From the NCBI RefSeq assembly GCF_900176645.1, contig NZ_FXAN01000094.1, forward strand, positions 1 to 64,000: a DNA stretch of 64,000 nt. Reading direction: 5' to 3'. A model generated the notes under the pieces. It did no database searches and had not been told where the DNA came from. It saw nothing but the letters and a program-made list of their open reading frames with translations. This document shows, in pieces, positions 90 to 14,893 of the stretch; the stretch's first letter is position 1; each line of letters begins with the position of its first letter. The position numbers and the translations under genes are program-made. The stretch comes from Burkholderia singularis. Its GTDB lineage: Bacteria > Pseudomonadota > Gammaproteobacteria > Burkholderiales > Burkholderiaceae.

Positions 90-568
90 ACACGGGAGAT
101 GTAGTCCGCGACTTGCGGTATCGGAAGCTGCTTGCTCGAGAACGCGACGTACACCACGCTCGTAAAGCCGCCCGACGTCCGCTCGATAACCGGATCATAG
201 GCCCCTTCCGGCAGCCGGTATTTGACCTGATTCACCTTGGCCATGACTTCGGTCAATGCAGCGATCGAATTGCTATTCAATTGCATGCGGACCGTAACGA
301 CACTGCGCCCCTGCGTGGACGTCGACGACAGATAATCGATCCCCTCGACGGACGCGACGGCCTGACTGATCGGTTGGGTCACGAAACCCTGCATCAGATC
401 CGACGACGCGCCGGGATATTGAGTCGTAACCGTAATCGTGGAGGTTTCCAGCACCGGATATTGCCGTATCGGCAAATTCAATACCGAAATCACGCCTGCC
501 ATCAGTATCAGCGTGCTCACCACCAACGCAAGCACCGGCCTGCGCAGAAAAATATCGGTAAATTTCAT
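90..568 (-). pseudogene. RND (HAE1) multidrug efflux permease, N-terminal fragment interrupted by an IS end
   Basis: About 159 residues match the N-terminus of AcrB/MexB-type inner-membrane pumps: the opening MKFTDIFLRRPV, first membrane helix, the RQYP motif near residue 37, then a PN1 porter segment (TTQYPGASS, AKVNQVKYRLP) and ADYISRVV. Pumps normally continue with a QP.L..V.GV segment. Here the reading frame instead runs into the insertion-sequence repeats at 89. Full-length pumps have about 1,030 residues, so more than 80 percent is displaced or lost. The start ATG overlaps the stop of the adaptor gene (ATGA), so the pair formed one operon. The pump is probably non-functional unless transcription and translation somehow resume outside the window. 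Confidence 0.7.
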
Positions 569-1674
569 TTCACTGTACCGCCCGACTTGTTCAGAGCGAG
601 CGAATCGTCGCCTCGTTGTACCAATACTCCATCGGTCAGTTTCACCTGCCCCGACGTCACAACTTCGTCGCCGTCCTTCAAACCGGCTGCGACAACCACG
701 TAACCGTCCCTACGCTCACCGACCTTTACATTCACCCGGCGCACACGGCTGCGCTTGTGATCGTCCTTATAAACCTGAAACACGGTTTCCCCGTATGCGT
801 TGTAGGTAATCGCAGATTCGGGTATGACCAGTTCGTTACGCTGCTCAGCCGCCACCCGGACTCGCGCATACATACCGGGCCTCAACAGCTTTTCCTTGTC
901 GACGAGATCGGCTTGAACGCTGACGATATGCGAATCGTTCAACTGAGGATCGATTGCGTTGATCTTTCCCTCGAAAACTTTATCAGGATAACTATCTGTT
1001 ACGATCGTCACCGATTGACCGGGTCGGAGCTTTGAGTTATCGCTTTCCGACACATTGAAATCCACTCTGATGCCATTCGGATTCGTCAACGTCGTAATCG
1101 GATTACCGGCCTGCAAATACTGCCCGAGATGTACCTGCCGTATTCCCAACATTCCGTCAAAGGGAGCCCGAATCGTTTTCTGGTTGATGTTGGCCAGAAT
1201 TTTTTCGAGCCCCCCTCGCGCGGCGTCGTATTGAGCTTTTGCATCATCGTAAGCCCGACGGCTCTCCGCACCGGTCTTCTGCAACTCCTGCACCCGATCC
1301 AATTGAGCCTTGGCCGTCGCCAGCTCGCCTCTCAAACGAATCAGCTCGGCTTGTTCCGGTTCGTCATTGATGCGGACCAATACGTCGCCGGCCTTCACCA
1401 CCTTTCCGGAATCGAAATTGATGGATGCAACCCGACCGCCCACCTCCGCCGATAGCAAAGTCTGCTGTCTTGCTTCGAGCTTTCCGATGTTTTCCACATA
1501 GTAGACATATGGCGCAGACGCCACTTTTGCCATTGCAACCAGGGTGGCGGGCCCGCCGTTTTGACTGCCCTCCTGCGCTTGGGCGGCTGAGTGCTGAAGC
1601 GTCATGTACATACCGCCGGCAGCAATGGCAGATATGAGCACAAAACCAAAAATATAACTTCCTCGCTTCTTCAT
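565..1674 (-). CDS. RND efflux membrane-fusion (adaptor) protein
   Basis: A 369-residue periplasmic adaptor of the AcrA/MexA/MdtA type, linking the inner-membrane RND pump to an outer-membrane channel. An N-terminal membrane anchor or signal (about residues 8-26) is followed by a lipoyl half-motif (SAEVGGRV, residues about 75-82), an alpha-helical hairpin rich in Ala/Gln/Leu (about 105-160), the second lipoyl half (TIRAPFDGMLG) and beta-barrel domains. The start has a GGTCGG-like ribosome site. Its partner pump gene follows with a 4-bp overlap but is cut by an insertion sequence, so this adaptor may be orphaned. It sits downstream of a flavin monooxygenase in an apparent operon, which suggests the pump once exported the product of the neighbouring pathway. 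Confidence 0.88.
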   Translation of the reverse strand: MKKRGSYIFGFVLISAIAAGGMYMTLQHSAAQAQEGSQNGGPATLVAMAKVASAPYVYYVENIGKLEARQQTLLSAEVGGRVASINFDSGKVVKAGDVLVRINDEPEQAELIRLRGELATAKAQLDRVQELQKTGAESRRAYDDAKAQYDAARGGLEKILANINQKTIRAPFDGMLGIRQVHLGQYLQAGNPITTLTNPNGIRVDFNVSESDNSKLRPGQSVTIVTDSYPDKVFEGKINAIDPQLNDSHIVSVQADLVDKEKLLRPGMYARVRVAAEQRNELVIPESAITYNAYGETVFQVYKDDHKRSRVRRVNVKVGERRDGYVVVAAGLKDGDEVVTSGQVKLTDGVLVQRGDDSLALNKSGGTVK

Positions 1675-1733: not shown

Positions 1734-2873
1734 TTATTGCTTTTCAAGAAAAGCGTTTCCGATGCTGTAGAAATTCAACGGCGAAAGGGTAAAGTGCTTG
1801 GAACCGGTATGAATGTCCCGGAAGCAATGCTCAAGGTAGTTCCGTTTATAGACCGCACCGGCGCCAGCCAGGGTATAAATCTGATTGAGCGCAGCAACCG
1901 AATTCTCAGTCATCGTCGCAGCCGCCACCGCTACTCGCGGATGCGTGCCGACCACGTTCCCGTCGTTGGGAACCGCCGCTTGCTCGACAGCGTCGTCCAA
2001 AAGCAATCTCGCGGAATAAAGCAGCGACAACGAACGCCCAACTTTCTCATCGATCACCGGACCAACACTCGGATCGAGTGGTTTCTTTCGATTGTCACGG
2101 AAGAATTCGAGTGCCGATTTGGCAATCCCATAGACGGTTGCCATTGCGGCGATAGTGCCGAAATCGTAGTAACCCGTGAAATAGGCTAGCGTCGAACGCT
2201 CCTTCGGACGATATTTCAGAAGACTCGCGTCAACGCTCAGTTTTTTGTCGACCCATACGTCTTTGCACGTGAAATCATTGCTGCCCGTGCCTCGCATACC
2301 CAGCGTGTCCCAGGTATCCAATATCTGGCATTTGCTCGCCGGAACGAAGAACATCCGTGTTTCAGGCGTGGCGGCTGCATCGTCATTCTGAACGACTGCG
2401 GTACATACCAGCCAATCCGCGTGCGGAGAACCGCTCGCAAACGTCCATTGACCGCTCAATCGGTAGCCGTCCTTTTCAGGAACCGCTGTGCCGCCGGAGT
2501 GAATGGCGCCAATGACAAACCGGCGGGTATCGCTATAAATCTCGTGGGCGGCCTCTTCAGGCAAGTAGTCGGCCAAGCGCCCCATTGCAACCTGAACCGC
2601 GACCTGCCATGAAACCGAAGCGTCATATTTGGACAAGGTTTGCAGAATTTCCGCGATCGTCGCCAAAGGAACCTGACGCCCGCCAAAAGCCTTTGGAATC
2701 GACAATTTCCCCAGACCGGCCTTAAAAAGCTCATCCATCACCTCTGGATGGGTCGCCTTTTTTTGCTCGGAATACTCTCGATGTCCGGCGAGCATCTCTC
2801 CGAATGCATCTATTTTGTTGATCCAGCTACCAGCATCTTCGGAAAGATTCTTCCGCAGCATCAGCGTGTTCAT
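1734..2873 (-). CDS. Flavin-dependent monooxygenase with acyl-CoA dehydrogenase fold (group D / DszC-like)
   Basis: 379 residues with the ACAD fold, but the details fit two-component flavin hydroxylases (DszC, HsaA, amino-sugar N-oxygenases) better than true acyl-CoA dehydrogenases: a DGYRLSGQWTFASG-type segment near residues 134-147, HADW just after it, and a C-terminal FRDIHTGSKH stretch near 355-364. Such enzymes use reduced FMN/FAD from a separate reductase; an FMN reductase is encoded at 6999-7559. The ribosome site AAGGAG is 8 nt before the ATG. Promoter and palindrome lie about 120 bp upstream, and the adaptor and pump genes follow on the same strand. The substrate is unknown. N-oxidation of an amino sugar is one possibility given rmlAB nearby, but no sugar aminotransferase is seen. 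Confidence 0.75.
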   Translation of the reverse strand: MNTLMLRKNLSEDAGSWINKIDAFGEMLAGHREYSEQKKATHPEVMDELFKAGLGKLSIPKAFGGRQVPLATIAEILQTLSKYDASVSWQVAVQVAMGRLADYLPEEAAHEIYSDTRRFVIGAIHSGGTAVPEKDGYRLSGQWTFASGSPHADWLVCTAVVQNDDAAATPETRMFFVPASKCQILDTWDTLGMRGTGSNDFTCKDVWVDKKLSVDASLLKYRPKERSTLAYFTGYYDFGTIAAMATVYGIAKSALEFFRDNRKKPLDPSVGPVIDEKVGRSLSLLYSARLLLDDAVEQAAVPNDGNVVGTHPRVAVAAATMTENSVAALNQIYTLAGAGAVYKRNYLEHCFRDIHTGSKHFTLSPLNFYSIGNAFLEKQ

Positions 2874-3387
2874 TACCAGCTCCTTATAGCTAACGAAAAA
2901 CGGGTTCTTGCGAGAAGCAGTGACCGCGCCCTCTGACGCAGGTCTGGCCAGGGGCCGGAGCGTGGTGGCAGCGGGTCGTCGTTATCCAATTGTACGAAAA
3001 CAATAGTACAGTCGCAAGCGACTATTGCACTGTGCGGCAACCAAACCCGCCATCCTCTCTATCTCCGCACCAAACAGGCGGATAGGAGGCCGCGCATGAC
3101 CTTTCGGTGGGTTTATGAAATTTATTTTTAATTGGATAGTTTTTTAATTCAAAAAAACTATGAACAACCCTGAGCACTGGAACCCAGTCTCATCTGAGTT
3201 ATTCGTCGCGAAATAGGCAGATATCGCCACTGGTTGCTTCGTCCGTCACACATCACGAAGGAACACATGCCGATTCGCCGGAGCAAGCCGTTTTTACCGA
3301 AAACGACCCATCCGGCGCCCAAAAACGGAGTATGCAATAACCAGCCTCGGCACACCCAGCACGCGAAAAACGATCCGACAAGCAGAT
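2874..3387. other. Intergenic region between monooxygenase operon and XRE gene
   Basis: No convincing gene. It holds promoter/operator site A (2989-3017) and an A/T-rich run around 3110-3160. Short open frames here lack ribosome sites and family similarity. Confidence 0.5.
2989..3017 (-). promoter_or_regulatory. Promoter with embedded operator-like palindrome (site A)
   Basis: Reading leftward, -35 TTGCGA (3017-3012) and -10 TACAAT (2994-2989) are separated by 17 bp. The palindrome TGTAC-N10-GTACA (2991-3010) fills the spacer and overlaps the -10. The same geometry recurs at site B (5677-5705), and a third copy of the palindrome is at 14364-14383. A further inverted repeat, CAATAG...CTATTG, surrounds TCGC-AA-GCGA immediately beside it (3001-3026). 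Confidence 0.55.
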
Positions 3388-3684
3388 CTAAGACACCGCC
3401 CGATCGTTCTTTAGCACAGACGCCAATTCGCACTGAACTTGCAGCAACAATTGATCTGTCTGGTTAACGCTGCCATCCGCATAAGCCAATATCAGCAAAG
3501 TCAGCGGATGAATGTCCAGAACTTCGCAGAGTTCCGCCAACTTATTCAGAGTTGGGCACTTGAGATCTCGCTCTAACGAGCTCAGATACGTACGACTGGA
3601 CACATTTGAAAATGCCTCCTGGCTCAGCCCCCTGGCCTTCCGGAATATTCTCAACGATGCTGCCAGTGAATGTTTTGCCACCAT
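3388..3684 (-). CDS. XRE-family helix-turn-helix transcriptional regulator
   Basis: 98 residues, nearly all one Cro/C1-type DNA-binding domain. Helices about residues 6-65 include the classic segment LRIFRKARGLSQEAF, a recognition region SSRTYLSSLERDLK and PTLNKLAELCEVLDIHPLTLL. There is no C-terminal ligand or dimerisation domain of note, so it resembles small repressors. It lies alone between two leftward units of the island, with about 500 bp free on each side. It is a candidate regulator of the repeated TGTAC palindrome, but no copy of that palindrome precedes its own start, so the link is inference only. Confidence 0.85.
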   Translation of the reverse strand: MVAKHSLAASLRIFRKARGLSQEAFSNVSSRTYLSSLERDLKCPTLNKLAELCEVLDIHPLTLLILAYADGSVNQTDQLLLQVQCELASVLKNDRAVS

Positions 3685-4219
3685 TCAAAGGATCCCCGAA
3701 ATTCAAAATTACAACCGATTGCGACACACATGGCCGCAACCCATCGCACGCGCGCCACCGCTACCTTGCTTCCGCCATTTGGCATATGGCCATTGAAAAA
3801 AAGCTCTTCAGTTTGAGTCGGCATTTGCCGCATGCGTTACCGAATCACGTCAGCAGGCCAAACACACGCCGCCAAAGCGCCCTTGGCGAATACCAGAGCA
3901 CGCAGACGCATGGACTTAGACTGGCCGGGAACCCGATAACCATCGCAGTGCCGGGCACACGACACCTACGACATTCGAATATCTCGGACGAAATACAGCT
4001 GCCGCCAGATCGCGCATTGGTCGAAAAATACGCGCATCGCAGCCAAGCAAACTGCAAAAACAAGAAACCGGCATGACGACGTTACAGACGCCACCGCCAA
4101 TCAATTGACTGGTAAAAAGCCAACATCAAGCCTGGACAGTAAATGCAATCGCTACCGGGGGCACTACCGGTATGACACACCATACGCCCATATCGGCACC
4201 ATCACATCAAAACTGCAAA
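3685..4219. other. Gene-free region upstream of the XRE gene
   Basis: About 535 bp in which no frame gives recognisable protein similarity or a good ribosome site. It may hold the XRE promoter and decayed DNA. No palindrome of the shared type was found here. Confidence 0.4.
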
Positions 4220-4672
4220 TTACTTAGAAAATGCACCAGCATGCAAACGCTTTCCGATGCCCATGTAATCGTATGTTGCATACACCTCGGTCCTAAACCC
4301 TCCCCAAGCCGACTCTTCCAATACCCTATTGACTTCCCGTAATTTCCCCGGAGGTACCTTTAGAGTAATCACTTGCCCGACCCCCATCCATACGTACCAA
4401 GATACCACTTCAACATCTTTAGGTGGAAATTTATCGTAGAATCCTTGTTTTTTGACTTGATTAATAATATCCGGCAAAGGCTTGCTCTGATCATGCTTGA
4501 GAACGACAGTCAACAATACCGGCTGATTCGCGCGCCCGGCCTCTTCACTCTTATTCTTGCCGGATTGGTCTGCCGAATCGATTCCGGCAGCCATCGTTTG
4601 AGCGCCACAGGAATACGAAAGCGCCAATAAAATCAGCAACGCCCCTTTACGGACAATCGGAAAAATACCCAT
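4220..4672 (-). CDS. Small exported protein of unknown function
   Basis: The chosen start (ATG at 4672) follows a strong GGAGGAA site and gives 150 residues; a longer frame running back into the dehydrogenase gene is less likely. The N-terminus is a signal sequence (hydrophobic residues about 9-20, then SYSCGAQ), either a lipoprotein-like Cys near 22 or a type I cleavage after QTMA. The mature part has a polar linker, then a compact domain with SWYVWMGVGQVITLKVPP and a C-terminal TYDYMGIGKRL, conserved-looking but not assignable. It follows the dehydrogenase gene after 37 bp and is probably cotranscribed. The function is not known. Confidence 0.65.
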   Translation of the reverse strand: MGIFPIVRKGALLILLALSYSCGAQTMAAGIDSADQSGKNKSEEAGRANQPVLLTVVLKHDQSKPLPDIINQVKKQGFYDKFPPKDVEVVSWYVWMGVGQVITLKVPPGKLREVNRVLEESAWGGFRTEVYATYDYMGIGKRLHAGAFSK

Positions 4673-4709
4673 GCTTCCTCCAATGAATTCGACCTCAAAA
4701 GGCGCGGCA

Positions 4710-5585
4710 TCAATCCAGCGCCGCTCGCCGTCTTGCCACCTCAAATAGGGAAGCCCAATCGTGTTCGCCTTGCTCATGGGCCAGGCCATCGAGTAAGTTT
4801 TCTCTTAAAACGCCCGCAAAGGGCAATGGAACGCGTGCCGCCTCTCCCGCCTGCAAAGCAAGCCGGATATCTTTCAGACCCAACGCCAGCTTGAATCCAG
4901 CCGGTTGGTAATTTTTTTCGGCCATCAGCCGACCATATCCTTGATATACCGGAACGGAAAATAGCGTGGAGCCGATCAGCTCAATGAAATCCTCGGTGGA
5001 AATACCATGACTTTCGGCCAGGGCAGCGCCTTCGGCCATCGACTCAATAGCGGACGCGATCATGAGATTGACCGACAATTTGACGGCATTGGCCTGAGCC
5101 GGATTCTCTCCGAATTGCCAGATTTTTTGTCCTAAAGGTACTAATAGCGGCCGAACCTTATCGATCAAATCGAATCGCCCGGCGGCGAGAATATTCAGCT
5201 TTCCCGATGCGGCGACGTCGGGCCGCCCCAATACCGGCGCCGCGATATACCCGATTCCTCTTTGTTGATGCAATGACGTCTGCTCTGCGGCCAGTGCCAC
5301 CGAGACCGTAGCCATATTGACGTGAATCGCTCCGCTCTGCATTTCATCAATGACACGGCCGTCCACCAATATCGACCGAACCGCATCATCGTCGGACAAC
5401 ATCGAAAACAACACGTCAACCTTGGCTACGTCGGCAGGTGTTTCGGCGACTTCCGCTCCGAGCCTATTCAGTTCCTCGATAGCCGGTGATGAGCGATTCC
5501 AAACCCGGACCTCGTATCCGGCCTTGACGAGATTGGCAGCCATCGGCTTGCCCATGGTACCCAACCCGATAAACCCGAGCTTCAT
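4710..5585 (-). CDS. NAD(P)-dependent beta-hydroxyacid dehydrogenase (3-hydroxyisobutyrate dehydrogenase family)
   Basis: 291 residues, the usual length for the family. The N-terminal Rossmann motif GFIGLGTMGKPMAANL is complete, the dinucleotide-specificity turn reads WNRSS (an Arg after the second strand suggests NADP), and the catalytic Lys lies in NAVKLSVNLM near residue 170. Relatives reduce semialdehydes, tartronate semialdehyde or imines. Ribosome site GGGAG is 7 nt before ATG. It is the first gene of a leftward pair with the small exported protein, and its promoter region shares palindrome B with the divergent luciferase-like gene. The substrate cannot be read from the sequence; in this setting it may reduce a pathway intermediate. 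Confidence 0.85.
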   Translation of the reverse strand: MKLGFIGLGTMGKPMAANLVKAGYEVRVWNRSSPAIEELNRLGAEVAETPADVAKVDVLFSMLSDDDAVRSILVDGRVIDEMQSGAIHVNMATVSVALAAEQTSLHQQRGIGYIAAPVLGRPDVAASGKLNILAAGRFDLIDKVRPLLVPLGQKIWQFGENPAQANAVKLSVNLMIASAIESMAEGAALAESHGISTEDFIELIGSTLFSVPVYQGYGRLMAEKNYQPAGFKLALGLKDIRLALQAGEAARVPLPFAGVLRENLLDGLAHEQGEHDWASLFEVARRRAALD

Positions 5586-5676
5586 TCACATCTCCCGAAA
5601 ATCGATCATTCGTAGCTTCGCGCCGCCGGTAAACGGCCGGCGGACATGCCGTCGAGGCAATATTTCGTGCCGCTCG

Positions 5677-5705
5677 TTGTTATTGTACACGTATCAACGT
5701 ACAAT
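5677..5705 (+). promoter_or_regulatory. Promoter with embedded palindrome (site B), divergent region
   Basis: Rightward -35 TTGTTA (5677-5682) and -10 TACAAT (5700-5705) with 17-bp spacing. The perfect palindrome TTGTAC-N10-GTACAA (5683-5704) fills the spacer and overlaps the -10, exactly as at site A. On the other strand the opposite arm also forms a TACAAT -10 (5687-5682), so the site could control both the dehydrogenase (leftward) and luciferase-like (rightward) operons. Confidence 0.55.
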
Positions 5706-5833
5706 CGAACAATAGATCTGATGTTCTGCACTTGGCCGTGCACCGAGCAATTCGGGCGTCGGCGCGAATGGTGAAGGTGAGCCGTTCGGATGTTGGCTGC
5801 AGTGCCGTCAGGCCGTCATTTAACGGAGGCTAC

Positions 5834-6940
5834 ATGCAGTTCGGAATTTACAGCGTTGGCGATGTCACGCGCGACCCCACGAACAATACCGTTCCCACCG
5901 AAGCAGAGCGCATACAGGCCATGATTCAAATCGCGAAAAAGGCTGAAGAAATCGGCCTGGATGTATTCGCGAGCGGCGAGCATCACAATCCGCCTTTTGT
6001 CACGCCTGCTCCGCCAGTCACGCTGGCCTATATCGCTGCGGTAACCAAAAAAATCATTCTGTCGACATCGACGACCCTGATTACGACCAACGACCCCGTG
6101 CGCCTCGCCGAAGAATATGCACTGCTGCAGCATCTGGCCGGCGGCCGAGTCGACCTCATGCTTGGAAGGGGCAACACGGCGCCGGTCTATCCATGGTTCG
6201 GCAAGAATATTCTGGATGCGGTGCCGCTTGCATTGGAAAACTACGATTTGCTGTATCGCCTATGGCGTGAGGAATCCATTAATTGGCGTGGAAAATTCCG
6301 GACGCCGTTACAGAATTTCACCTCCATACCCCGGCCGCTGGACGATGTGCCGCCGTTCGTCTGGCACGGTTCCATTCGCACGCCGCAATTCGCCGAACAG
6401 GCCGCATATTATGGAGACGGATTTTTCGCGAGCCATATCCTCTGGCCACGCGAACACTTCATGCAACTCGTCAATTTTTATCGAGAACGCTATGCGCATT
6501 ATGGCCACGGTAAGCCTGAGCAGGCCATCGTCGGTCTCGGTGGGCATATTTACATCAGGCCCAATTCGCAAGACGCCAAGCGAGAGTTCCGCCCTTATTT
6601 CGACCATGCGCCGGTTTACGGCTACGGGCCTTCTCTCGAAGAATTCATGGAGGCCACGCCGCTGTCGGTCGGCAGCCCGCAGGAAATCATCGACAAAACG
6701 CTGACCTTCAGGGAGCACTTCGGCGACTATCAACGCCAGCTTTTTCTTTTCGATCATGCAGGGATACCGCTGAAAACCGTGCTCGACATGCTGGATCTGT
6801 TCGGCAGTCAGGTGCTCCCCGTGTTGAGAAAAGAAACCCAGAAGAATCGAAACCCTTTGGCTGCCGATCCGCCGACTCATGAAAACAGGAAAGCAGCACA
6901 TAAAAACAACGAAATTCTTAAAAGCTACGCAAGTTCTTGA
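5834..6940 (+). CDS. Luciferase-like FMN-dependent monooxygenase (CE1758 family)
   Basis: 368 residues from the ATG at 5834, which follows a GGAGGC site; an upstream in-frame start is less well placed. The TIM-barrel flavin monooxygenase pattern is clear: MQFGIYSVGDV start, SGEHHNPPF near residue 54, LSTSTTLITTNDPVRLAEEYA, a GGRVDLMLGRGN segment, and a C-terminal SPQEIIDK element. The paired FMN reductase directly downstream is the hallmark of the CE1758/CE1759 two-component systems, in which the reductase supplies FMNH2 and this enzyme oxygenates an unknown substrate. The tail after residue 340 is polar and probably disordered. Confidence 0.85.
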   Translation: MQFGIYSVGDVTRDPTNNTVPTEAERIQAMIQIAKKAEEIGLDVFASGEHHNPPFVTPAPPVTLAYIAAVTKKIILSTSTTLITTNDPVRLAEEYALLQHLAGGRVDLMLGRGNTAPVYPWFGKNILDAVPLALENYDLLYRLWREESINWRGKFRTPLQNFTSIPRPLDDVPPFVWHGSIRTPQFAEQAAYYGDGFFASHILWPREHFMQLVNFYRERYAHYGHGKPEQAIVGLGGHIYIRPNSQDAKREFRPYFDHAPVYGYGPSLEEFMEATPLSVGSPQEIIDKTLTFREHFGDYQRQLFLFDHAGIPLKTVLDMLDLFGSQVLPVLRKETQKNRNPLAADPPTHENRKAAHKNNEILKSYASS

Positions 6941-6998
6941 AATTCATTGATACGAAAACTCGATTTCCGATCCCTTCAACGAGCATGAGGTGACCCAA

Positions 6999-7559
6999 AT
7001 GAAAAGAATCGCCATCGTCACTGCCGGTGTGAGCTTTCCATCATCCACCGATTTTTTGGCATCCAGAATCATGGATGCCGTCAAGGAAGTATCCGGAGAA
7101 AACGGTGAACTGGAATTTGAATGGGTGGAGTTGAGAAAGCTAGCTGCTGAAATCAGTCAAGCTATTGTGACAGGGGAAAAAGGCGTCGCACTGCAAAACG
7201 CGATCGACTCCACCGTGGACTCGGATGCCTTGATCGTGGCAACCCCCGTCTATCAAGGATCGTACAGCGGGCTCTTCAAGATGTTCATCGATCTGCTGCG
7301 TCCGGACGGAATAACCGCCAAACCGGTATTACTGGCGGCCACGGGCGGCAGCGTCAGGCACTCGCTGATGCTGGACGGTGCAATGAGAACCCTCTTCGGC
7401 TATTTGCGTGCTTGGGTGGTACCTACCGCGATATTCGCCACGTCCAAGGATTGGACTCAGAAGGAAACCGAAGAGATCTTGAATGAAAGAATAAAATCGG
7501 CATCCAGCGAACTTTGGACCCTGACAGCCAATCAATCCCAACCAGCCTTGCTTCAATAA
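6999..7559 (+). CDS. NADPH-dependent FMN reductase (CE1759 / SsuE-MsuE type)
   Basis: 186 residues from ATG 6999, preceded by GAGGTG at good spacing; an upstream GTG at 6990 is possible. Flavodoxin-like fold: ribityl-phosphate loop near the N-terminus (TAGVSFPSSTDFL), TPVYQGSYSGLFKMFIDLL near residues 84-102, and ATGGSVRHSL later. It supplies reduced FMN to the adjacent luciferase-like monooxygenase and possibly to the ACAD-fold monooxygenase at 1734-2873. It is the second gene of a two-gene operon (58-bp gap). The region downstream converges on the terminator of the rml operon. Confidence 0.88.
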   Translation: MKRIAIVTAGVSFPSSTDFLASRIMDAVKEVSGENGELEFEWVELRKLAAEISQAIVTGEKGVALQNAIDSTVDSDALIVATPVYQGSYSGLFKMFIDLLRPDGITAKPVLLAATGGSVRHSLMLDGAMRTLFGYLRAWVVPTAIFATSKDWTQKETEEILNERIKSASSELWTLTANQSQPALLQ

Positions 7560-7876
7560 ACAAGCCACGATCGAGGCGATTGACGGTAAAAATTCAATTC
7601 AAATAAATCACCACTCCATTTTCAAACCCATCTCATGAAAAATATCTCAGGAGCACGATATGTTCCGCCATGAAAGCGGCCAGCGTGCAACTTCATTCAC
7701 GACATCATTCCCGGCAATACCCTTCTGCAAGCGCGCCAACAATAACGAGCCCAGGTGCCTGCACCCATACCGGGCCGAAGCACTCGCGCCACCGCGTCTC
7801 CGAACCTGCCGATCCAATAAAAAAGACCCAGGCAAGCTGCAATGCTTACCTGAGTCACAACCTGCCCAATGCTCTG
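7560..7876. other. Convergent intergenic region
   Basis: Between the FMN reductase (rightward) and rmlA (leftward). It holds the rmlA terminator at 7819-7856. A rightward frame beginning at 7660 has a fair AGGAG site but runs antisense into rmlA and has no recognisable similarity; it may be the start of a decayed third gene. Confidence 0.45.
7819..7856 (-). terminator. Rho-independent terminator of the five-gene rml operon
   Basis: Read leftward, an imperfect 13-bp stem (GACTCAGGTAAGC paired with GCTTGCCTGGGTC) with a 6-nt loop is followed by six T residues. It lies 20 bp beyond the rmlA stop codon. Confidence 0.8.
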
Positions 7877-8752
7877 TTATGCCAACAGCGTGGAAAGATA
7901 TTGTCCGTAGCTATTCTTGCTCAAAGACGATGCACGCTCATGCAACGCTTGTTGACTGATCCACCCTTTGGAGAAAGCGATTTCCTCCAAGCAAGCGACT
8001 TTCAACCCCTGCCGCTTTTCAATCGCTTGAACGAAGTTCGACGCCTCGAGCAAAGAATCATGGGTGCCAGTATCGAGCCACGCGAAGCCGCGCCCAAGCA
8101 TATTGACGTACAAATCCCCTCGCTCCAGATAGGCTCGATTGACATCCGTTATTTCCAGCTCGCCGCGTGCGGACGGCTTGATCGACGCGGCGATATCCAC
8201 TACATCGTTGTCGTAAAAATACAGGCCCGTAACGGCGAAATTCGATTTCGGTTCGCGCGGCTTTTCCTCCAGGCTGATCGCCCGGCCGGACGCATCGAAC
8301 TCCACCACGCCAAATCGCTCCGGATCGAGCACGTGATAGCCGAAAATCGTGGCGCCGGTTTCCCTGGATGTAGCGTCGCCCAGAATCCCCGACAAGCCGC
8401 TGCCATAGAAGATGTTGTCGCCGAGAATCAGGCAGACGTTGTCGTTTCCGATAAATTCTTTTCCGATCAAAAACGCCTGTGCCAAACCATCAGGGCTCGG
8501 CTGAACTGCATAGCTGAGCGAAACGCCAAATTGACTGCCGTCACCTAGCATTCGCTGAAAGCTACCAATGTCGTCCGGTGTGCTGATGATGAGTATGTCC
8601 CGGATATTCGCCAAAAGAAGCACGGACAGCGGATAGTAGACCATCGGCTTGTCGTAAACCGGAAGCGACTGCTTCGAAACACCGAAGGTTAGCGGATGCA
8701 GCCGCGTACCGCTGCCTCCGGCCAAAACGATTCCCTTATAAGTGGCCATCAT
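7877..8752 (-). CDS. rmlA: Glucose-1-phosphate thymidylyltransferase RmlA
   Basis: Makes dTDP-glucose from dTTP and glucose 1-phosphate, the first step to dTDP-deoxysugars. 291 residues, the family norm. The nucleotide-binding signature [15 protein letters not shown] opens the protein, followed by [11 protein letters not shown], the metal-binding GDNIFYGSG near residue 112, a VEFD...EEKP segment and the [13 protein letters not shown] motif near 225. Two adjacent ATG codons can start it (8752 or 8749). It is the last gene of a five-gene leftward operon, 36 bp after rmlB, with a terminator just downstream. RmlC and RmlD are absent, so the cluster by itself stops at dTDP-4-keto-6-deoxyglucose. 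Confidence 0.95.
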
Positions 8753-8788
8753 TCAATCTCATGAAATTTTATACTTTCGACCGGCGGC

Positions 8789-9844
8789 CTAGACCACACC
8801 GATCCGTTCGAGCCGGTAAGCGCCGGACAACACTCTTTCCCACCACCAGGAATGATTTAAATACCACTCGACCGTTTTTCGCAGCCCAGTGCTGAAACTT
8901 TCGACCGGCCGCCAACCGAGTTCCGACGTGATCTTCCGATGATCGATCGCATATCGGGCATCGTGCCCAGGCCGGTCCGCGACAAAGGTAATGAGATCGC
9001 GATAATGGTCGATCTCGCGCGCGGGCCGCAGTTCCTGCAGCAAATCACAGATCGATTCGACCACTTCTAGATTCGTCCGCTCATTCCCACCGCCGATGTT
9101 GTAGGTTTCGCCGACCGTTCCCTTGGTCACCACCAGATACAGCGCCCGTGCGTGATCCTCGACATACAGCCAATCTCGAATCTGCTGACCGTTGCCGTAT
9201 ACCGGCAATGGTTTTCCGCCCAAAGCACTGAGAATCATGTGCGGGATGAGCTTTTCGGGGAAGTGATAAGGGCCGTAGTTATTCGAGCAATTCGTAATAA
9301 CGACCGGCATCCCATAAGTGCGATGCCAAGCTCTGACCAAATGATCAGACGCCGCTTTCGATGCGGAATACGGCGAACTCGGCGCATAAGGCGTTTTCTC
9401 CGTAAACGGACTGTCGTCTTTCTCCAGATCGCCAAAGACCTCATCCGTCGAAATATGATGGAACCGGAACGCCTCCTTTTTGGCTGCCGGCAACCCCGAC
9501 CAATAACGGCGGCTGACTTCGAGCATCACGAACGTTCCGTTCACGTTGGTCTGGATAAAATCGGCCGGCCCGGTAATCGAGCGATCGACGTGCGACTCGG
9601 CTGCCAAATGCATGACTGCATCCGGCTTGAACTTTTCGAAGATCGACTGAATTTCTTCCGCATCGCAGATGTCGGCCTCGAAGAAAAAATACCGCCCCGA
9701 ACTCGACACGTCTTGCAGGGAGTCGATGTTTCCTGCGTAGGTAAGCTTGTCGATATTGCCGATCACGGCATCTGTCGACGTGGCCAAATATCGAATCAAA
9801 GCAGAACCGATAAAACCGGCTCCACCCGTCACGAGAATTCTCAT
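8789..9844 (-). CDS. rmlB: dTDP-glucose 4,6-dehydratase RmlB
   Basis: Converts dTDP-glucose to dTDP-4-keto-6-deoxyglucose. 351 residues of extended short-chain dehydrogenase fold: NAD-binding [15 protein letters not shown] at residues 6-20, the catalytic triad in STDEVFGDL (Thr-Asp-Glu) and [12 protein letters not shown] (Tyr-x3-Lys), the substrate region [17 protein letters not shown], and [13 protein letters not shown]. All key residues are present. It follows the toroid-protein gene by 32 bp and precedes rmlA by 36 bp. With no dedicated rmlC, rmlD or aminotransferase here, the final sugar is not predictable from this window. Confidence 0.95.
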
Positions 9845-9876
9845 AGCGTTGCCCTGCTCAATTTAACAAGCGATTT

Positions 9877-12030
9877 TCAGTTGACGACAGCAACCCAATA
9901 CGGAGTCAGTGAGCGCTGCAGAATCAAAAGGGTTTGGATACAGGTAAAGCTTTCGTCCGTCGTCGCGGAAGTCGTCCCTAATGGGCCGAAGCCGCCGTCC
10001 TCTTTCTGGTGCAAAGCCACCCACTGCTTGACCTCTTCGGGGAATTTCGGCTCCGAATCCAGCAGGTAAAGCGACGCGATCGCCATGTAAGTCCCGACCA
10101 GGCTGCGCGCACGCCCCGGCCGATACAGAAACGGGCCGCTGGGATCCTGGAGCGCGCGCAGCCAGTCGACCGTTGCCGTTGCATGAGCGAGCCGCTTGCC
10201 CAGCGCGCCAAGCGTCGACACCGCGCGGTACGTGGAAAAGGTATCCGGCGGTAAGCCCGGCATATTCGAGAATCCGCCGTCAGCGCAGCGGCACGCAAGC
10301 GCGAACGCGAACACACCATTCTTGTCGGCAGGCTCCGCCTCCAATGCATGCAGCGACAAGACGGCCAAATTCGTATGCCAGATATCCGAGCGCAAGCCAG
10401 GCACGTTTCCGAATCCGCCATCCGGGTTCTGGCAGCGATTGACATAGTCGATGCATGCCTGTGGATTCAGCGGCTCGCTATTGAGCAAGCGCAGCGAAAC
10501 CGTCGCGCAATACGTTGCGAACACATCGCTGAGCTGCCCCGGTTGCTCCGAAAATCCGCCGTCCGCGTTCTGGCAATTCCGTATCGATCTGACCAAGTCT
10601 TCCGCCGCGGCGATCGGCATATCGAGCGCGCGCAAATCGGACAGCACGTGCAACGCGGAAAACACTTGCCAAGTGCGATCGGCGCGAAATCCGAGCGGCG
10701 AGATCTCGGCAGTCAACCCATACGGCAACGACTTGGAAGGCCTTGCGCGATCCAGCCAGTTCAAATATTTGTCCACATTGACCGGAAGCGTCGGAACCGC
10801 GCCGGTGTGCGGATCTCGAAAATTACCGTTGAGCGCATGGTCAATCAGTTCACTGTCGATATCGGCTGCACCGGCACGTGGCGCTTCAGGCAATGCTTGC
10901 GCGACCTGCGCGCAAACGATCTGCGTCTCCAGCGTCTTGACGTGCAACGGCAGATAGCTGAGATTTCCGATCGTAAAGACACCCGGCTGGCGGGGCGCCG
11001 CCCAAAACTGACGTGCGAACGGCACCGTGGGATCTTCCGGCGTCGACCAGAAATATCCCATTCCAAGGAAAAAGCCGCCGGACTGAGCATCGCGGAAATG
11101 CGCGACAGCGTGGATCAATTCGTCCTCAACCGCGGCATCGGCATGGCCGGATTCGCGAACGGCCTTCAGCAGCAATGCCGCATCCATCGTCCGCTTGATC
11201 GGAAACGGCGATTCGTTCTTCACATACGAAACCTGCCAGTCCACCTTCACTTGTTCGCTCGCGTTGACGCGATCCCAGAAGCCGCCGTATCGCGTATCAC
11301 GATAAAGATCGATGGTTACTTTCAGGAACGAGCGAACTTTTCCGGCAAGTGCGTCGTCGGCATTCGCGCTGGCCCACTTCGCCAATGCAATAGCCGTTTT
11401 CGCCCGGACCTCGCATGAGAGAAACGCTCTCGACTGCCACTTGCCGGCGCCTGCCTCGAGGCGCTGCTTCAGCCGATCGACGAGCGCAGACAATACGTCG
11501 AGCCCTCGGTCAATGCCGAGCTTTTTCAGTGTTGCGGCAAGGCAAGTCGCACTGATCTCCAGATCGAGACCGCCTGCATCATCCAACGCAACGGTCCAAT
11601 CCGCGCTATAGATGCCGGCCAGTTCCCCTTGTTGCGCCAGCGTCCGCACCTTCTCAAGCAGATCGAATGCTCTCGTCGAATAAATTGGCTTTCCGAACTT
11701 TTCCGCATAAAGCAACAACGCCCTGGCAGTATTCAGTTGCACATGCAGCGTTCTCGCTCCTCCCACCGCTTGAGGATTCCAATAGCGGTCAGTCAATTCG
11801 GAAAAACCGCCCTGCTCCGGACGATACAGCTTGTCGAGCGCAGCAACGGCGAATTCTGCATTCGCCTCGTCGCCTTGCTCGATATACAAAATCGCCGCGT
11901 TGACCTGATCGATCAATCGCTTGTCCGTGCTGACAACGATTTTTCCTTCGCAGTCCGTAACGGGGAAATAGCCGCCGTATTCACCATCCTTGAGCCGAAG
12001 CTCGATGAACTTGAGCACGTCAGATTGCAT
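9877..12030 (-). CDS. Two-domain alpha/alpha-toroid protein, terpene cyclase / prenyltransferase-like
   Basis: 717 residues. The C-terminal half (about 440-717) carries five repeats of the QW/prenyltransferase-beta kind with cores such as QNADGGF, QNPDGGF, CADGGF, QDPSGPF and KEDGGF, each followed by a D...TY.A...L helix. The N-terminal half (1-400) also looks like an alpha/alpha barrel, with GG-F/GG-W turns as in epimerase and cellulase-type toroids. I do not see the DXDD acid motif of squalene-hopene cyclases, nor a clear DxC...H zinc site of protein prenyltransferases. The start overlaps the glycosyltransferase stop by 11 bp, implying translational coupling. Role unknown: a cyclase that has lost the acid motif, a sugar epimerase-like enzyme, or a binding protein in glycoside assembly. 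Confidence 0.7.
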   Translation of the reverse strand: MQSDVLKFIELRLKDGEYGGYFPVTDCEGKIVVSTDKRLIDQVNAAILYIEQGDEANAEFAVAALDKLYRPEQGGFSELTDRYWNPQAVGGARTLHVQLNTARALLLYAEKFGKPIYSTRAFDLLEKVRTLAQQGELAGIYSADWTVALDDAGGLDLEISATCLAATLKKLGIDRGLDVLSALVDRLKQRLEAGAGKWQSRAFLSCEVRAKTAIALAKWASANADDALAGKVRSFLKVTIDLYRDTRYGGFWDRVNASEQVKVDWQVSYVKNESPFPIKRTMDAALLLKAVRESGHADAAVEDELIHAVAHFRDAQSGGFFLGMGYFWSTPEDPTVPFARQFWAAPRQPGVFTIGNLSYLPLHVKTLETQIVCAQVAQALPEAPRAGAADIDSELIDHALNGNFRDPHTGAVPTLPVNVDKYLNWLDRARPSKSLPYGLTAEISPLGFRADRTWQVFSALHVLSDLRALDMPIAAAEDLVRSIRNCQNADGGFSEQPGQLSDVFATYCATVSLRLLNSEPLNPQACIDYVNRCQNPDGGFGNVPGLRSDIWHTNLAVLSLHALEAEPADKNGVFAFALACRCADGGFSNMPGLPPDTFSTYRAVSTLGALGKRLAHATATVDWLRALQDPSGPFLYRPGRARSLVGTYMAIASLYLLDSEPKFPEEVKQWVALHQKEDGGFGPLGTTSATTDESFTCIQTLLILQRSLTPYWVAVVN

Positions 12031-13279
12031 AGCTCACTTCCTCGTCCTTGTCCGTGACTTCAGCCGACTCAGCCAACTCCAATATCTTCACGGCGGCCCG
12101 ATCCGCCCCCTTCCAATCTGGCGAGGCAACCTTCGAGTGCGGCAGGAAATATTCGTCGGCCTTGCGGTCCTTCAATAGCTCGGCCTCGATGATCTCCGCC
12201 AATTCATCCTTGTCGTAACCGACATAGGTCGGGAACCCCAGCTCGCACAAGCGGCGCAGCGCTTCGACTTCGTGGTATTCCGAGTTGGACGGGAGAATGA
12301 AAAGCGTCGGGATGTTCAGCGCCGAGATTTCGGTCACCGTGATCCAACCTGGGGCCGACAGCAGCAGTTCCGCCTCTTTGAGCAACCCCATCCAGTTCGG
12401 ATAGTAAGGAACGGTGATGATGCCGTCGCCCGCCTTGACCTCGTCTCGCCCGAGCAGAACCATCTTGAGATCCGGACGTTGCTTCTTGAGGATTTCGTAG
12501 CTCTCGATATAGCCGTTAAGCAACCCTTGCTTGCTTTCGGCGAACATCGTGGTGCCGCTGATCGACGCGATAATGTACGGCGAATCGCCGATGCCCAGAT
12601 CCGCGCGAACCGTAGACACATCCTGATTCGCGGGCTCGCGAATCATCGGCCCGACAAAGTGCGCCCGACCGGAAATCAATGCGGCTTCGACCGGCGTGCC
12701 CGTATCGATGCTTTCGATGTAAGGCTTGTCGGTGAGAACCAGTTGACTGCTCTCGATCATCCATGCGAATTGCCGATGCAGCGCGACGCGCGCCCGTTGC
12801 AATTCGACTGCGTTGACATCGAATCCGCCACGCCCCAGCTCTTCGTCGGTCAATTGGCAAAGCGTGAAGTCATAACGCTCAGTCACGAAGACCAACGGTG
12901 TCCCGCTGAAGATAGCAGCCATGCAAGCAGCCATGTTGTAATCGGAGACTAGAACATCGGGCTTCAGCTCGTCGATCAATGCAAGATAAGACAGAACCCG
13001 CTCGCCGGACATGAAGGTATTGGCGATATAGCCGCCAATATAGTTCGTCCAGTCCAATGTCTTGGACAGGTTGCTTTTCTTCGAGTAATCGACGAGCCGT
13101 CCGGCAATGTCGATTACCTTGATTCCGGATTTTTCGAAGAGCGGCGTAAACGTCTGCTGAAGCGATCCCAGCGCCACCGCGAGTTCGGCGGTGCTGTTCT
13201 GCCGTTTGATCGCCTGACCGATGGAAAGAGCACGCATGTTGTGCCCGGAACCGGTCGGATTCGGTGCGAAGATGATCAT
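12020..13279 (-). CDS. GT-B glycosyltransferase (MurG/UGT-like)
   Basis: 419 residues from the ATG at 13279, preceded by AGGAG; longer frames would overlap the upstream gene fully. It opens with MIIFAPNPTGSGHNMRALSIG, the glycine-rich loop of GT1/GT28-type enzymes, and the C-terminal domain has SAPGWITVTEI and LPSNSEYHEVEALRRL, matching the NDP-sugar pocket. It probably transfers the sugar made by RmlA/RmlB (after modification) to an acceptor. It is sandwiched between the acyltransferase gene (2-bp gap) and the toroid-protein gene (11-bp overlap), so the three are very likely made together. Sugar and acceptor are unknown. Confidence 0.8.
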   Translation of the reverse strand: MIIFAPNPTGSGHNMRALSIGQAIKRQNSTAELAVALGSLQQTFTPLFEKSGIKVIDIAGRLVDYSKKSNLSKTLDWTNYIGGYIANTFMSGERVLSYLALIDELKPDVLVSDYNMAACMAAIFSGTPLVFVTERYDFTLCQLTDEELGRGGFDVNAVELQRARVALHRQFAWMIESSQLVLTDKPYIESIDTGTPVEAALISGRAHFVGPMIREPANQDVSTVRADLGIGDSPYIIASISGTTMFAESKQGLLNGYIESYEILKKQRPDLKMVLLGRDEVKAGDGIITVPYYPNWMGLLKEAELLLSAPGWITVTEISALNIPTLFILPSNSEYHEVEALRRLCELGFPTYVGYDKDELAEIIEAELLKDRKADEYFLPHSKVASPDWKGADRAAVKILELAESAEVTDKDEEVSYAI

Positions 13280-13281
13280 TT

Positions 13282-14277
13282 TTACTTCTCCTGTATTGAG
13301 ACTACGCCTCGAGATTGATGTCCTGCCTGAACGTCGCGAATCACGACCGAGTAGGGTTCTACCGTTGCGCCCTCGCCGATGTTCACTGGCCCCACGATTA
13401 CGCTTCCCTCTCCGATGGTGCACCCCGGCCCGATCGTTACGGGTGCCTCAACCCACGGAAGAGACCGAAAACGGTGGTCATGCGTAGACGTGACAATGGT
13501 CACGCCTCGACCGATCACACAACGTTCGCCGACGACGAGACCACCCGCGCCTTCGACGATCACGAGCGGCGCGATGTGCACGCCACTACCCAGGTGAATC
13601 CCGCCTTTTGGCGATACCCCGCCTTTTTTCGCACTCCGGCCGATCAGGATGCAGCCGTCGTCGATCGACACGTCCACGCCGCCCGTCAACTCCGCATCGA
13701 CGAAGGTGGAACCGGATACACGCCAGTTCTGCAAACCGCCTTCGGCGATCGCCCGCTGCGGGGACAACGACGATTCCTCGAGAAACGTCGGAAGCCCCAT
13801 TTGCGCTCGATGTCGCACCTTGCTCAATATCGGCGAAGGATCGGGGAAACCGTCCTCGGCCGCTTGCCGCTTCGATACGATCCGTGCCGGCCGACCGACC
13901 GCGATTTCGTCAGCCGCCACGTCCGTCATAACGAGCGCACCTGCCGCCACCACAGCGCCGTCGCCGATCGTCACACCGGCGGCAACGGTCACATTCGTAC
14001 CGAGCCAGACATTTCGCCCGATTCGAATTCTTCGCTCGCGCGTGCCGCGCAAATGCACGCGCGACGCGAACATGCTTCCCTCTTCAATATCGGCAAACTC
14101 CAAAATCGATCTAAACCCGACAAAGCAGGATTTTCCGATTTTCGTTTCCGTAACTGTCGAAGCAGCGCGCACCCATACCCCCGGCCCAATTTCCGAGCCG
14201 TTCGATATTTCCGAATGGATTTCGATAAGTGCGTCGCCAGACAGCACATCCTTTTCGGATGGTTGTCGAGTGGTCAT
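13282..14277 (-). CDS. Double left-handed beta-helix (hexapeptide) acyltransferase
   Basis: 331 residues from ATG 14277, with GGGGAA 9 nt upstream; ATG 14298 adds seven residues. Two separate hexapeptide-repeat domains are visible: residues about 10-135 (IGPGVWV, IGKSCFVG, IGRNVWLGTNVTV, IGDGAVVAAGALV, then VGRPARIV) and about 185-325 (IDDGCILIG, LGSGVHIAPLVIV, VGERCVIGRGVTI, STHDHRF, IGPGCTIGEGSVI). The second domain has the WbbJ/LacA-like HDH segment; the first ends with the usual PARIV exit. A linker of about 50 residues joins them. It is the first gene of the five-gene rml operon. It probably acylates a sugar; which domain is active is unclear. Confidence 0.78.
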   Translation of the reverse strand: MTTRQPSEKDVLSGDALIEIHSEISNGSEIGPGVWVRAASTVTETKIGKSCFVGFRSILEFADIEEGSMFASRVHLRGTRERRIRIGRNVWLGTNVTVAAGVTIGDGAVVAAGALVMTDVAADEIAVGRPARIVSKRQAAEDGFPDPSPILSKVRHRAQMGLPTFLEESSLSPQRAIAEGGLQNWRVSGSTFVDAELTGGVDVSIDDGCILIGRSAKKGGVSPKGGIHLGSGVHIAPLVIVEGAGGLVVGERCVIGRGVTIVTSTHDHRFRSLPWVEAPVTIGPGCTIGEGSVIVGPVNIGEGATVEPYSVVIRDVQAGHQSRGVVSIQEK

Positions 14278-14357
14278 ACTTGGAAATTCCCCGTACATGC
14301 CGACCCGTCACTCAAAGACGAATAGGCGGATTGCTGTGAACATGCGAGCAGCGATAG

Positions 14358-14383
14358 TTGTACTGTACGATAGTAATAGTACT
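14358..14383 (-). promoter_or_regulatory. Operator-like palindrome (site C) upstream of the five-gene operon
   Basis: TGTAC at 14364-14368 and GTACT at 14379-14383 are separated by 10 bp, with an extra TTGTAC directly abutting at 14358-14363. The spacer matches that of site A at 7 of 10 positions. It lies 87 bp upstream of the acyltransferase start. The -10/-35 assignment is less clear here than at sites A and B. Confidence 0.5.
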
Positions 14384-14893
14384 TTTCGTTTCGTATTGCA
14401 ATACCCCTTGGGTTACGTCGGGCATTATATGTAACTATTTGATTTTTAATACATACCTTGACTTGAAAACCCGAGAAGTCTACCGGCACAAGCTATTTTT
14501 CGCAATTTCCTTATTATGGCCACACAAAATGAACACTATAGAATTCAATGCTTATTATTTATGCCCAAATCGAGTGAATTCCTGTTCGAAATCAGTGATG
14601 ATTTTTCCCCATCGGAACGCATATACCCAAATCAAATCATTAATGCAAGTAATTTTTTTACAGAAAAATATGCCAATCATTCCGGTAAAAAAATTTTGAT
14701 TAAGCATCTTCTTAATTGAATTGTCACAGAAATCCGTGCCGCCCTCAGCGTATTTGTGCGCGTGGAATTCTTGCGATCGCCAGGTATCGCATCGCGAATA
14801 CAGCAACGCTCGTCCCGGTACGGATAACGTGTCGTTATGCGGCCAATCCTTTGACGGAAAAAGCGCCACCGACTCCAACATGCAGAGATCTTG
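14384..14893. other. A/T-rich gene-free region between island and carnitine operon
   Basis: About 500 bp of markedly A/T-rich DNA marking the edge of the low-GC island. On the minus strand between about 14881 and 14700 a frame contains KDWPHNDTL...RALLY...FHAHKY, vaguely like YjlB-type cupins, and may be a decayed gene end. A rightward 67-codon frame (14516-14719) has no ribosome site. Neither is called as a gene. Confidence 0.35.

What the first reader, a model, noticed from the sequence alone, without database searches (positions are those of the whole stretch)
2989..14383. A repeated TGTAC-N10-GTACW palindrome marks promoter regions across the left island
Three copies occur (2991-3010, 5684-5703, 14364-14383) and nowhere else that I noticed in the window. 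Two of them sit inside a -35/N17/-10 promoter with identical geometry: the downstream arm overlaps the TACAAT -10. The central spacers of sites A and C match at 7 of 10 positions. They precede the monooxygenase/efflux operon, the dehydrogenase pair and the luciferase-like pair (divergent), and the five-gene rml operon. This ties four transcription units into one regulon under an unidentified repressor.
Basis: seen in the sequence. Interest (0 to 1): 0.8.

Follow-up and report, generated by a model that had tools for sequence, protein, structure and literature searches.

The report
Operator sites of an ArsR repressor
Three matching DNA palindromes in a Burkholderia gene island look like the landing sites of one small ArsR-type repressor, encoded just past the left edge of the window, that would switch an export pump and several enzymes together; the same arrangement recurs in Pseudomonas.

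Summary
TGTAC-N10-GTACW occurs at 2991, 5684 and 14364, and at one other place in the 5.54 Mb genome, inside an ORF. Each copy covers predicted promoter boxes. The one-regulon reading is supported, and a regulator can be named: not the XRE protein but a 116-aa ArsR-family protein on contig C12, which adjoins the window's left end in the relative TSV86. It lies in the operon fed by site A and has a weaker site of its own. The island recurs in 21 Pseudomonas genomes with sites before the same operons although gene order differs. ArsR is the only regulator found in all lineages. A matrix made from island sites was applied to 24 loci of other ArsR relatives (40-53% identical): 28 sites, all directly upstream of the ArsR gene (20 of 24 loci), none elsewhere in 77,770 bp; none of 300 permuted matrices reached 20 loci. 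Binding, repression and inducer are inferred. Kind: new member of a known kind, with an operator rule for this ArsR branch.

The parts
2990..3011 (-). Operator A, upstream of the operon monooxygenase-MFP-RND-OMF-ArsR-chorismate lyase (from the RND gene on, across the contig break or on contig C12)
   Evidence: matrix score 25.3; site at the same place in 22 of 22 islands that have the monooxygenase gene
2989..3017 (-). Predicted promoter A: TTGCGA-N17-TACAAT, the -10 overlapped by the operator arm
   Evidence: in 16 full P. fluorescens-type islands the spacer is 17 in 8 and 18 in 8
5683..5704 (.). Operator B, between the divergent dehydrogenase and luciferase-like genes
   Evidence: score 19.8; directly upstream of the luciferase-like gene in 19 of 23 islands
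5677..5705 (+). Predicted promoter B of the luciferase-like gene: TTGTTA-N17-TACAAT
   Evidence: TTGCGA-N17-TACATT in 16 of 16 full P. fluorescens-type islands
14363..14384 (-). Operator C, upstream of the acyltransferase-glycosyltransferase-toroid protein-rmlB-rmlA operon
   Evidence: score 22.9
14377..14398 (-). Weaker overlapping operator C2
   Evidence: score 15.5; not in the training set; also in TSV86; tandem sites also before this operon in the P. entomophila-type islands
14373..14401 (-). Predicted promoter C: TTGCAA-N17-TATTAC, its -10 inside operator C
   Evidence: TTGCAA-N17-TATAAC in 16 of 16 full P. fluorescens-type islands
1734..2873 (-). Flavin monooxygenase of the acyl-CoA dehydrogenase fold
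565..1674 (-). RND efflux periplasmic adaptor (MFP)
   Evidence: TIGR01730, 259.9 bits, cut-off 94.9
4710..5585 (-). 3-hydroxyisobutyrate dehydrogenase-like oxidoreductase
5834..6940 (+). CE1758-family luciferase-like monooxygenase
   Evidence: TIGR04036, 651.7 bits, cut-off 479.1
6990..7559 (+). CE1759-family FMN reductase
   Evidence: TIGR04037, 206.8 bits, cut-off 175.9
7877..14298 (-). Operon C: hexapeptide acyltransferase, glycosyltransferase, prenyltransferase-toroid protein, RmlB, RmlA
3388..3684 (-). XRE-type HTH protein; not the likely regulator of these sites
   Evidence: not found in any Pseudomonas island

Best explanation
The palindromes are operators of one ArsR-family (winged-helix) repressor encoded in the same island, in the operon fed by site A but on the far side of an assembly break (contig C12:9435-9782, minus strand). 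A dimer binds a 22-bp dyad of two half-sites of the form TTGTACGA, placed between or over the -35 and -10 boxes, and so blocks RNA polymerase at operon A, at the divergent promoters of site B, at operon C and, through a further site, at its own gene. An inducer releases it, most likely a small organic compound that the pump exports or the oxygenases act on, and the units come on together. Shown here: the sites, their conservation, their overlap with predicted promoter boxes, the co-occurrence with this ArsR gene, and the shared operator form across ArsR relatives. Inferred: binding, repression, inducer.
For: Own genome: one ArsR relative at E 0.001, on C12; C12:4-14001 and C83:83-2216 align to adjoining stretches of one TSV86 contig. 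Islands: 23; of the 22 other than the own one, no two are alike at 98% or more over 3 kb. Of these 22, the 9 found through the luciferase-like gene all have ArsR; 13 were found through ArsR itself. Sites upstream of the monooxygenase in 22 of 22 and of the luciferase-like gene in 19 of 23, and of the acyltransferase operon wherever that start was held. All 84 hits at score 15 or more in 24 stretches lie outside the 18 reference genes. Sites not used for training were found upstream of ArsR (own, TSV86, 4 of 4 P. entomophila-type) and of the flavin reductase. Transfer test on 24 loci of other ArsR relatives: 28 sites at score 11 or more, all in the 200 bp upstream of ArsR, none elsewhere; 300 permuted matrices averaged 0.6 upstream and 1.8 elsewhere, none reached 20 loci. 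The divergent neighbours differ: OYE-family reductase, SDR, MFS transporter. In 71 actinobacterial loci the luciferase-like gene occurs without ArsR and without the motif. R26 and K50, needed for DNA binding in RexT (PMC8960804, passages), are kept.
Against: No binding or expression data. Four of 24 relatives gave no site at the threshold (L102, L118, L124, L128); L118, at 53% the most similar one tested, has nothing like the motif (best 4.8). The transfer test was not fully blind: I had seen palindromes upstream of these genes before I scored them with the matrix. The relatives belong to a few clades and the islands to three lineages, so counts of loci are not counts of independent events. 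For the 13 islands found through ArsR its presence proves nothing. The reduced island L137 keeps only site B. The same outer arms lie beside a TetR gene in two other Burkholderia genomes. The extra sites score lower (14-18) than A, B and C. The predicted structure is of low confidence (pLDDT 67) and its fold matches are weak.
Confidence: 0.86

Rival explanations
1. A TetR-family regulator binds the palindromes; dyads with arms of this size are common for TetR dimers.
For: In two other Burkholderia genomes TTGTACTGAGCGTTCAGTACAA lies between an aldehyde dehydrogenase gene and a TetR gene (families tested for L008). The four P. entomophila-type islands have a TetR gene next to the flavin reductase site.
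Against: No relative of the island TetR was found in the Burkholderia stretches or the 17 P. fluorescens-type islands. The matrix finds sites before ArsR relatives with other neighbours. Inner bases differ: TTGTACTGA beside TetR, mostly TTGTACGA or TTGTACTA here.
Confidence: 0.06
2. The XRE protein at 3388-3684 is the regulator.
For: It lies between sites A and B.
Against: Found only in the window genome and TSV86; not in the 21 Pseudomonas islands that carry sites.
Confidence: 0.02
3. The ArsR protein binds these sites but works as an activator or anti-repressor, as HlyU is said to do.
For: The ArsR-family protein HlyU is linked to transcriptional activation (PMC10509353, title and passages seen).
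Against: The sites cover predicted -35/-10 boxes at A, B and C, where bound protein would block polymerase.
Confidence: 0.05
4. Chance or promoter-derived likeness: TGTAC/GTACA comes from TACAAT-like -10 boxes.
For: Arms overlap -10 boxes; background of the pattern is not zero (167 of 382 Pseudomonas genomes without the island have at least one match).
Against: Expected 0.03 in the window; conservation across 23 islands; transfer test.
Confidence: 0.01

Closest known systems
RexT, ArsR-SmtB redox regulator of Nostoc sp. PCC 7120 (PDB 7txm, 7txn, 7txo)
   Same: Best match among solved structures by sequence (E 8.6e-20; named); R26 and K50 kept; palindromic operator with TTCG/CGAA arms (PMC8960804, passages).
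   Different: RexT operator is ATTCG-N15-CGAAT. The vicinal pair Cys40-Cys41 is missing here (one Cys, at 41), and of the peroxide tetrad Cys41, Arg61, Thr68, Asn77 only Cys41 and Arg61 are kept.
PyeR (PA4354), non-classical ArsR repressor of Pseudomonas aeruginosa
   Same: PMC7950407 (passages) states that PyeR is an ArsR-family repressor that autorepresses pyeRM-xenB, with an MFS transporter and a xenobiotic reductase. Recalled, from no call: it has no metal motif and binds a palindrome kept among its orthologues.
   Different: Its sequence and operator were not tested here; the 2012 paper is not held. The island genes differ from pyeM and xenB.
ArsR genes divergent from an OYE-family reductase (Pseudomonas), an SDR (L152) or an MFS transporter (Burkholderia)
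   Same: 40-50% identical; same 22-bp dyad with half-sites TWGTWCGA (neighbours of five loci read, four of them tested).
   Different: TAGTTCGA-N6-TCGAACTA or close to it in Pseudomonas and L152; paired mixed sites in Burkholderia. The four Pseudomonas proteins aligned keep Thr68 and Asn77.

Membership tests
ArsR/SmtB family (winged helix) | Family HTH domain above a curated cut-off | tested here: met
   PF12840 HTH_20 31.9 bits, cut-off 27; the NCBIfam metalloregulator model is below its cut-off, 39.6 against 55
ArsR/SmtB family (winged helix) | Binds a dyad operator of about 20 bp at target promoters | tested here: inconclusive
   Conserved dyads at the promoters; binding itself not testable here
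ArsR/SmtB family (winged helix) | Fold of the family | tested here: inconclusive
Classical ArsR metalloregulator | CXC metal site in helix alpha 3 | tested here: not met
   Only one Cys in that region, EHNCGSILK / EHPCGRILK
RexT-type peroxide sensor | Vicinal Cys40-Cys41 | tested here: not met
   N or P at position 40
RexT-type peroxide sensor | Tetrad Cys41, Arg61, Thr68, Asn77 | tested here: not met
   Cys41 and Arg61 kept; Gln68 and Leu77 instead
PyeR | Operon with MFS transporter and xenobiotic reductase | tested here: not met
   Neighbours here are pump genes and a chorismate lyase-like gene
PyeR | Sequence and operator of PA4354 | not tested

The most novel reading that the evidence does not exclude
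A branch of ArsR repressors that once sensed peroxide has been recruited as the dedicated, metabolite-sensing master switch of a mobile biosynthesis-and-export island (chorismate lyase, two flavin oxygenase systems, dTDP-sugar genes, glycosyltransferase, RND pump). It lost half of the peroxide tetrad but kept the ancestral operator frame, so that one half-site rule, TWGTWCGA, reads the operators of the whole branch.
Probability: 0.3. Interest if true: 0.6.

Novelty: new member of a known kind. Interest (0 to 1): 0.47.

Why it matters
It ties a motif, a regulator and four transcription units together and gives a directly testable operator for an island, shared by Burkholderia and Pseudomonas, that I found described in none of the searches. 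It also suggests a general operator rule (22-bp dyad, half-site TWGTWCGA) for an ArsR branch whose members sit beside reductases, transporters and this island; that would let targets be predicted from sequence. The inducer would point to the compound that the island makes or exports.

Tried and rejected
XRE as regulator: rejected by its absence from the Pseudomonas islands. LysR (P. fluorescens-type only, 16 of 17; not found in L137) and TetR (P. entomophila-type only): each confined to one lineage. I first took the nearest solved structure for PyeR from memory; one search showed that 7txm-7txo are RexT, so what I say of PyeR is marked as recalled or as read in PMC7950407.

Rows dropped before counts: L119 (partial ArsR) and L153 (TSV86 again) before the transfer test, which otherwise used all non-island ArsR loci returned (searches returned loci only for their best matches). 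L103, L104, L145 and L146 before the site table; L145 and L146 hold ArsR relatives without an island and without the motif. At threshold 9 the transfer test gives 29 upstream hits in 21 loci and 1 elsewhere.
Full report
Observation. TGTAC-N10-GTAC occurs at three places in the window (2991, 5684, 14364) against a shuffled mean of 0.03 matches. In the whole genome (5,538,112 bases, 135 contigs) TGTAC-N10-GTACW occurs at four places; the fourth lies inside a called ORF of 465 codons. The genome is probably Burkholderia singularis LMG 28154: its description lists accessions FXAN01000001-FXAN01000135, that is 135 contigs (PMC5592201, passages); this identity is an inference. Sites A and B lie in boxes TTGCGA-N17-TACAAT and TTGTTA-N17-TACAAT, with an operator arm over the -10.

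Surroundings. Going left from site A on the minus strand: a flavin monooxygenase of acyl-CoA dehydrogenase fold, then the RND adaptor, then the contig end. Site B separates a 3-hydroxyisobutyrate dehydrogenase-like gene from a CE1758/CE1759 luciferase-like monooxygenase and FMN reductase pair. Site C precedes a hexapeptide acyltransferase, a glycosyltransferase (no Pfam hit; weak NCBIfam hits), a 717-aa prenyltransferase-toroid protein, RmlB and RmlA. G+C is 53-57% over the first 16 kb and 57-65% beyond.

The regulator. A search for relatives of the luciferase-like protein (best 80 loci kept of at least 577) brought Burkholderia sp. TSV86 and eight Pseudomonas islands; a small HTH gene lies beside the pump genes. 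Its relative in the window's genome is on contig C12:9435-9773 (72% identity to the Pseudomonas query, the only match at E 0.001), and the genomes of all nine of those loci have it too. C12:4-14001 and C83:83-2216 align to positions 16089-2123 and 2135-1 of one TSV86 stretch, so the two contigs very probably adjoin, within the RND gene. The order is monooxygenase, MFP, RND, OMF, ArsR, chorismate lyase-like. The protein matches HTH_20 above its cut-off. In the genus, 14 of 65 genomes match at E 1e-10; two are near-identical, own and G042 (same contig number and coordinates as TSV86), the other twelve at most 49%. In 369 genomes of the class only the own genome and a 49% relative match at E 1e-25. 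In 398 genomes of the genus of Pseudomonas sp. ANT_J12, 160 match at E 1e-15: 16 at 76% or more, one at 54%, one partial at 67%, and the others shown at about 40-50% (the match list is cut).

Islands. I compared 23: own, TSV86, 17 of P. fluorescens type (one reduced, L137) and 4 of P. entomophila type. The type names are mine. Nine apart from the own one were found through the luciferase-like gene, 13 through ArsR, so for those 13 the presence of ArsR is by construction. No two of these 22 are alike at 98% or more over 3 kb. Sites stand upstream of the monooxygenase in 22 of 22 islands that have it, and directly upstream of the luciferase-like gene in 19 of 23; in the four P. entomophila-type islands the nearest strong site is the monooxygenase one, with a weaker site (12.4-13.3) before the luciferase-like gene. 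Site C is kept in 16 of 16 P. fluorescens-type islands with the acyltransferase, in own and in TSV86. In the P. entomophila-type islands the acyltransferase-glycosyltransferase-toroid genes lie elsewhere in the island and a tandem pair of sites stands before the acyltransferase in 3 of 3 flanks fetched (L165-L167); the fourth, L144, shows the same pair at the end of its stretch. In the 16 full P. fluorescens-type islands the promoter boxes are kept: B TTGCGA-N17-TACATT 16 of 16, dehydrogenase TTGAAA-N16-TACAAT 16 of 16, C TTGCAA-N17-TATAAC 16 of 16, A with spacer 17 in 8 and 18 in 8. Within this type the sites are almost identical, so the weight comes from three lineages, not from 23 counts.

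Matrix. From eight site families I built a half-site matrix. In leave-one-out each held-out family scored 16.3-24.1. In the 49 kb of the rest of the window no position reached 11; shuffled window: 0.075 hits at 15 or more against 4 observed. New sites: upstream of ArsR in own and TSV86 (16.4) and in 4 of 4 P. entomophila-type islands (15.1-16.2); upstream of the flavin reductase in the P. fluorescens-type islands where the flank was held (14.1-18.2; 12 of 12: 11, one); C2 at 14377 (15.5). P. fluorescens-type islands have no separate site before ArsR. All 84 hits at 15 or more in the 24 stretches lie outside the 18 reference genes; other genes were not screened.

Transfer test. The matrix was applied to 24 loci of other ArsR relatives (40-53% identical), 77,770 bases. 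I had already noticed palindromes before these genes, but the matrix was made from island sites only. It gave 28 hits at 11 or more, all within 200 bp upstream of the ArsR gene, in 20 loci, none elsewhere; at 9 or more, 29 upstream and 1 elsewhere. With 300 column-permuted matrices the mean was 0.6 upstream and 1.8 elsewhere; the best reached 14 loci. The misses are L102, L124 and L128, which have a decayed form (8.9-10.9) at the same place, and L118 (53% identity), which has none (4.8). I read out the divergent neighbours of five loci: OYE-family reductase in L101 and L122, SDR in L152, MFS transporter in L155 and L158; Pfam agrees for L101, L152, L155 and L158 (L122 named by likeness to L101). 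Pseudomonas sites read TAGTTCGA-N6-TCGAACTA or close to it, Burkholderia ones TTGTACGA-N6-TCGAACTA with a mirror copy, island ones TTGTACGA-type on both sides. So the operator goes with the ArsR gene, not with the neighbour. The loci are related by descent, so the 20 are not 20 independent trials.

Genome-wide specificity. NTGTACN9CGTACW matches in 183 of 398 Pseudomonas genomes: 16 of 16 with the island and 167 of 382 without. For the ten island genomes whose matches were listed, 28 of 31 places fall in the island. The motif alone is therefore no proof of a site; clustering and position are what count.

Control from the luciferase-like gene. Of the 80 loci, nine carry the island and the motif; the other 71, all actinobacterial by title, have no match. 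In these 71, tblastn at E 1e-8 finds the luciferase-like gene in 71, the FMN reductase in 49, remote RND and dehydrogenase relatives in 20 and 4, and no ArsR or monooxygenase.

Mechanism. A bound dimer over -35/-10 would block polymerase, so repression is the natural reading. R26 and K50, needed for DNA binding in RexT (PMC8960804, passages), are kept. The peroxide tetrad is half lost (Gln68, Leu77) and Cys40 is missing, while four Pseudomonas relatives outside the island (L120, L125, L127, L129) keep Cys41, Arg61, Thr68 and Asn77. I infer that the island repressor senses something other than peroxide, perhaps a phenolic product or toxin, since chorismate lyase, flavin oxygenases and a pump are its targets. 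The island's product is unknown.

Verdict. Observation confirmed, regulon reading supported, regulator identified with good confidence; biochemical proof is lacking.

Noticed in passing
L154-L161, about 90-150 bp upstream of the ArsR match: Burkholderia ArsR relatives have a long double palindrome made of two mixed operators (TTGTACGA-N6-TCGAACTA and its mirror); in two tested, L155 and L158, the divergent neighbour is an MFS transporter. It contains TTCG-N15-CGAA, like the published RexT site.
   Followed up: partly
L008 and L010, 1501-1522: In two other Burkholderia genomes TTGTACTGAGCGTTCAGTACAA lies between an aldehyde dehydrogenase gene and a TetR gene (Pfam tested for L008); a possible unrelated TetR operator with the same outer arms.
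   Followed up: partly
L011:14042-15743 (TSV86) against window 9877-14298: In TSV86 the acyltransferase and the first parts of the glycosyltransferase and toroid protein were not found, although operator C is kept; gene decay or an assembly fault.
   Followed up: no
L137 (G309): Reduced island: monooxygenase, dehydrogenase and rml-operon genes not found, while luciferase-like gene, pump, ArsR and site B remain.
   Followed up: no
window 9877-12030: 717-aa protein with a prenyltransferase/squalene cyclase-like toroid at its C-terminal end and a weak GlcNAc 2-epimerase match at its N-terminal end, in an rml operon.
   Followed up: partly
L118 / L145 (G144): An ArsR relative of 53-54% identity without island or motif; a perfect 22-bp palindrome GTGCAAACTTTAAAGTTTGCAC lies on the 3' side of its gene.
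   Followed up: no
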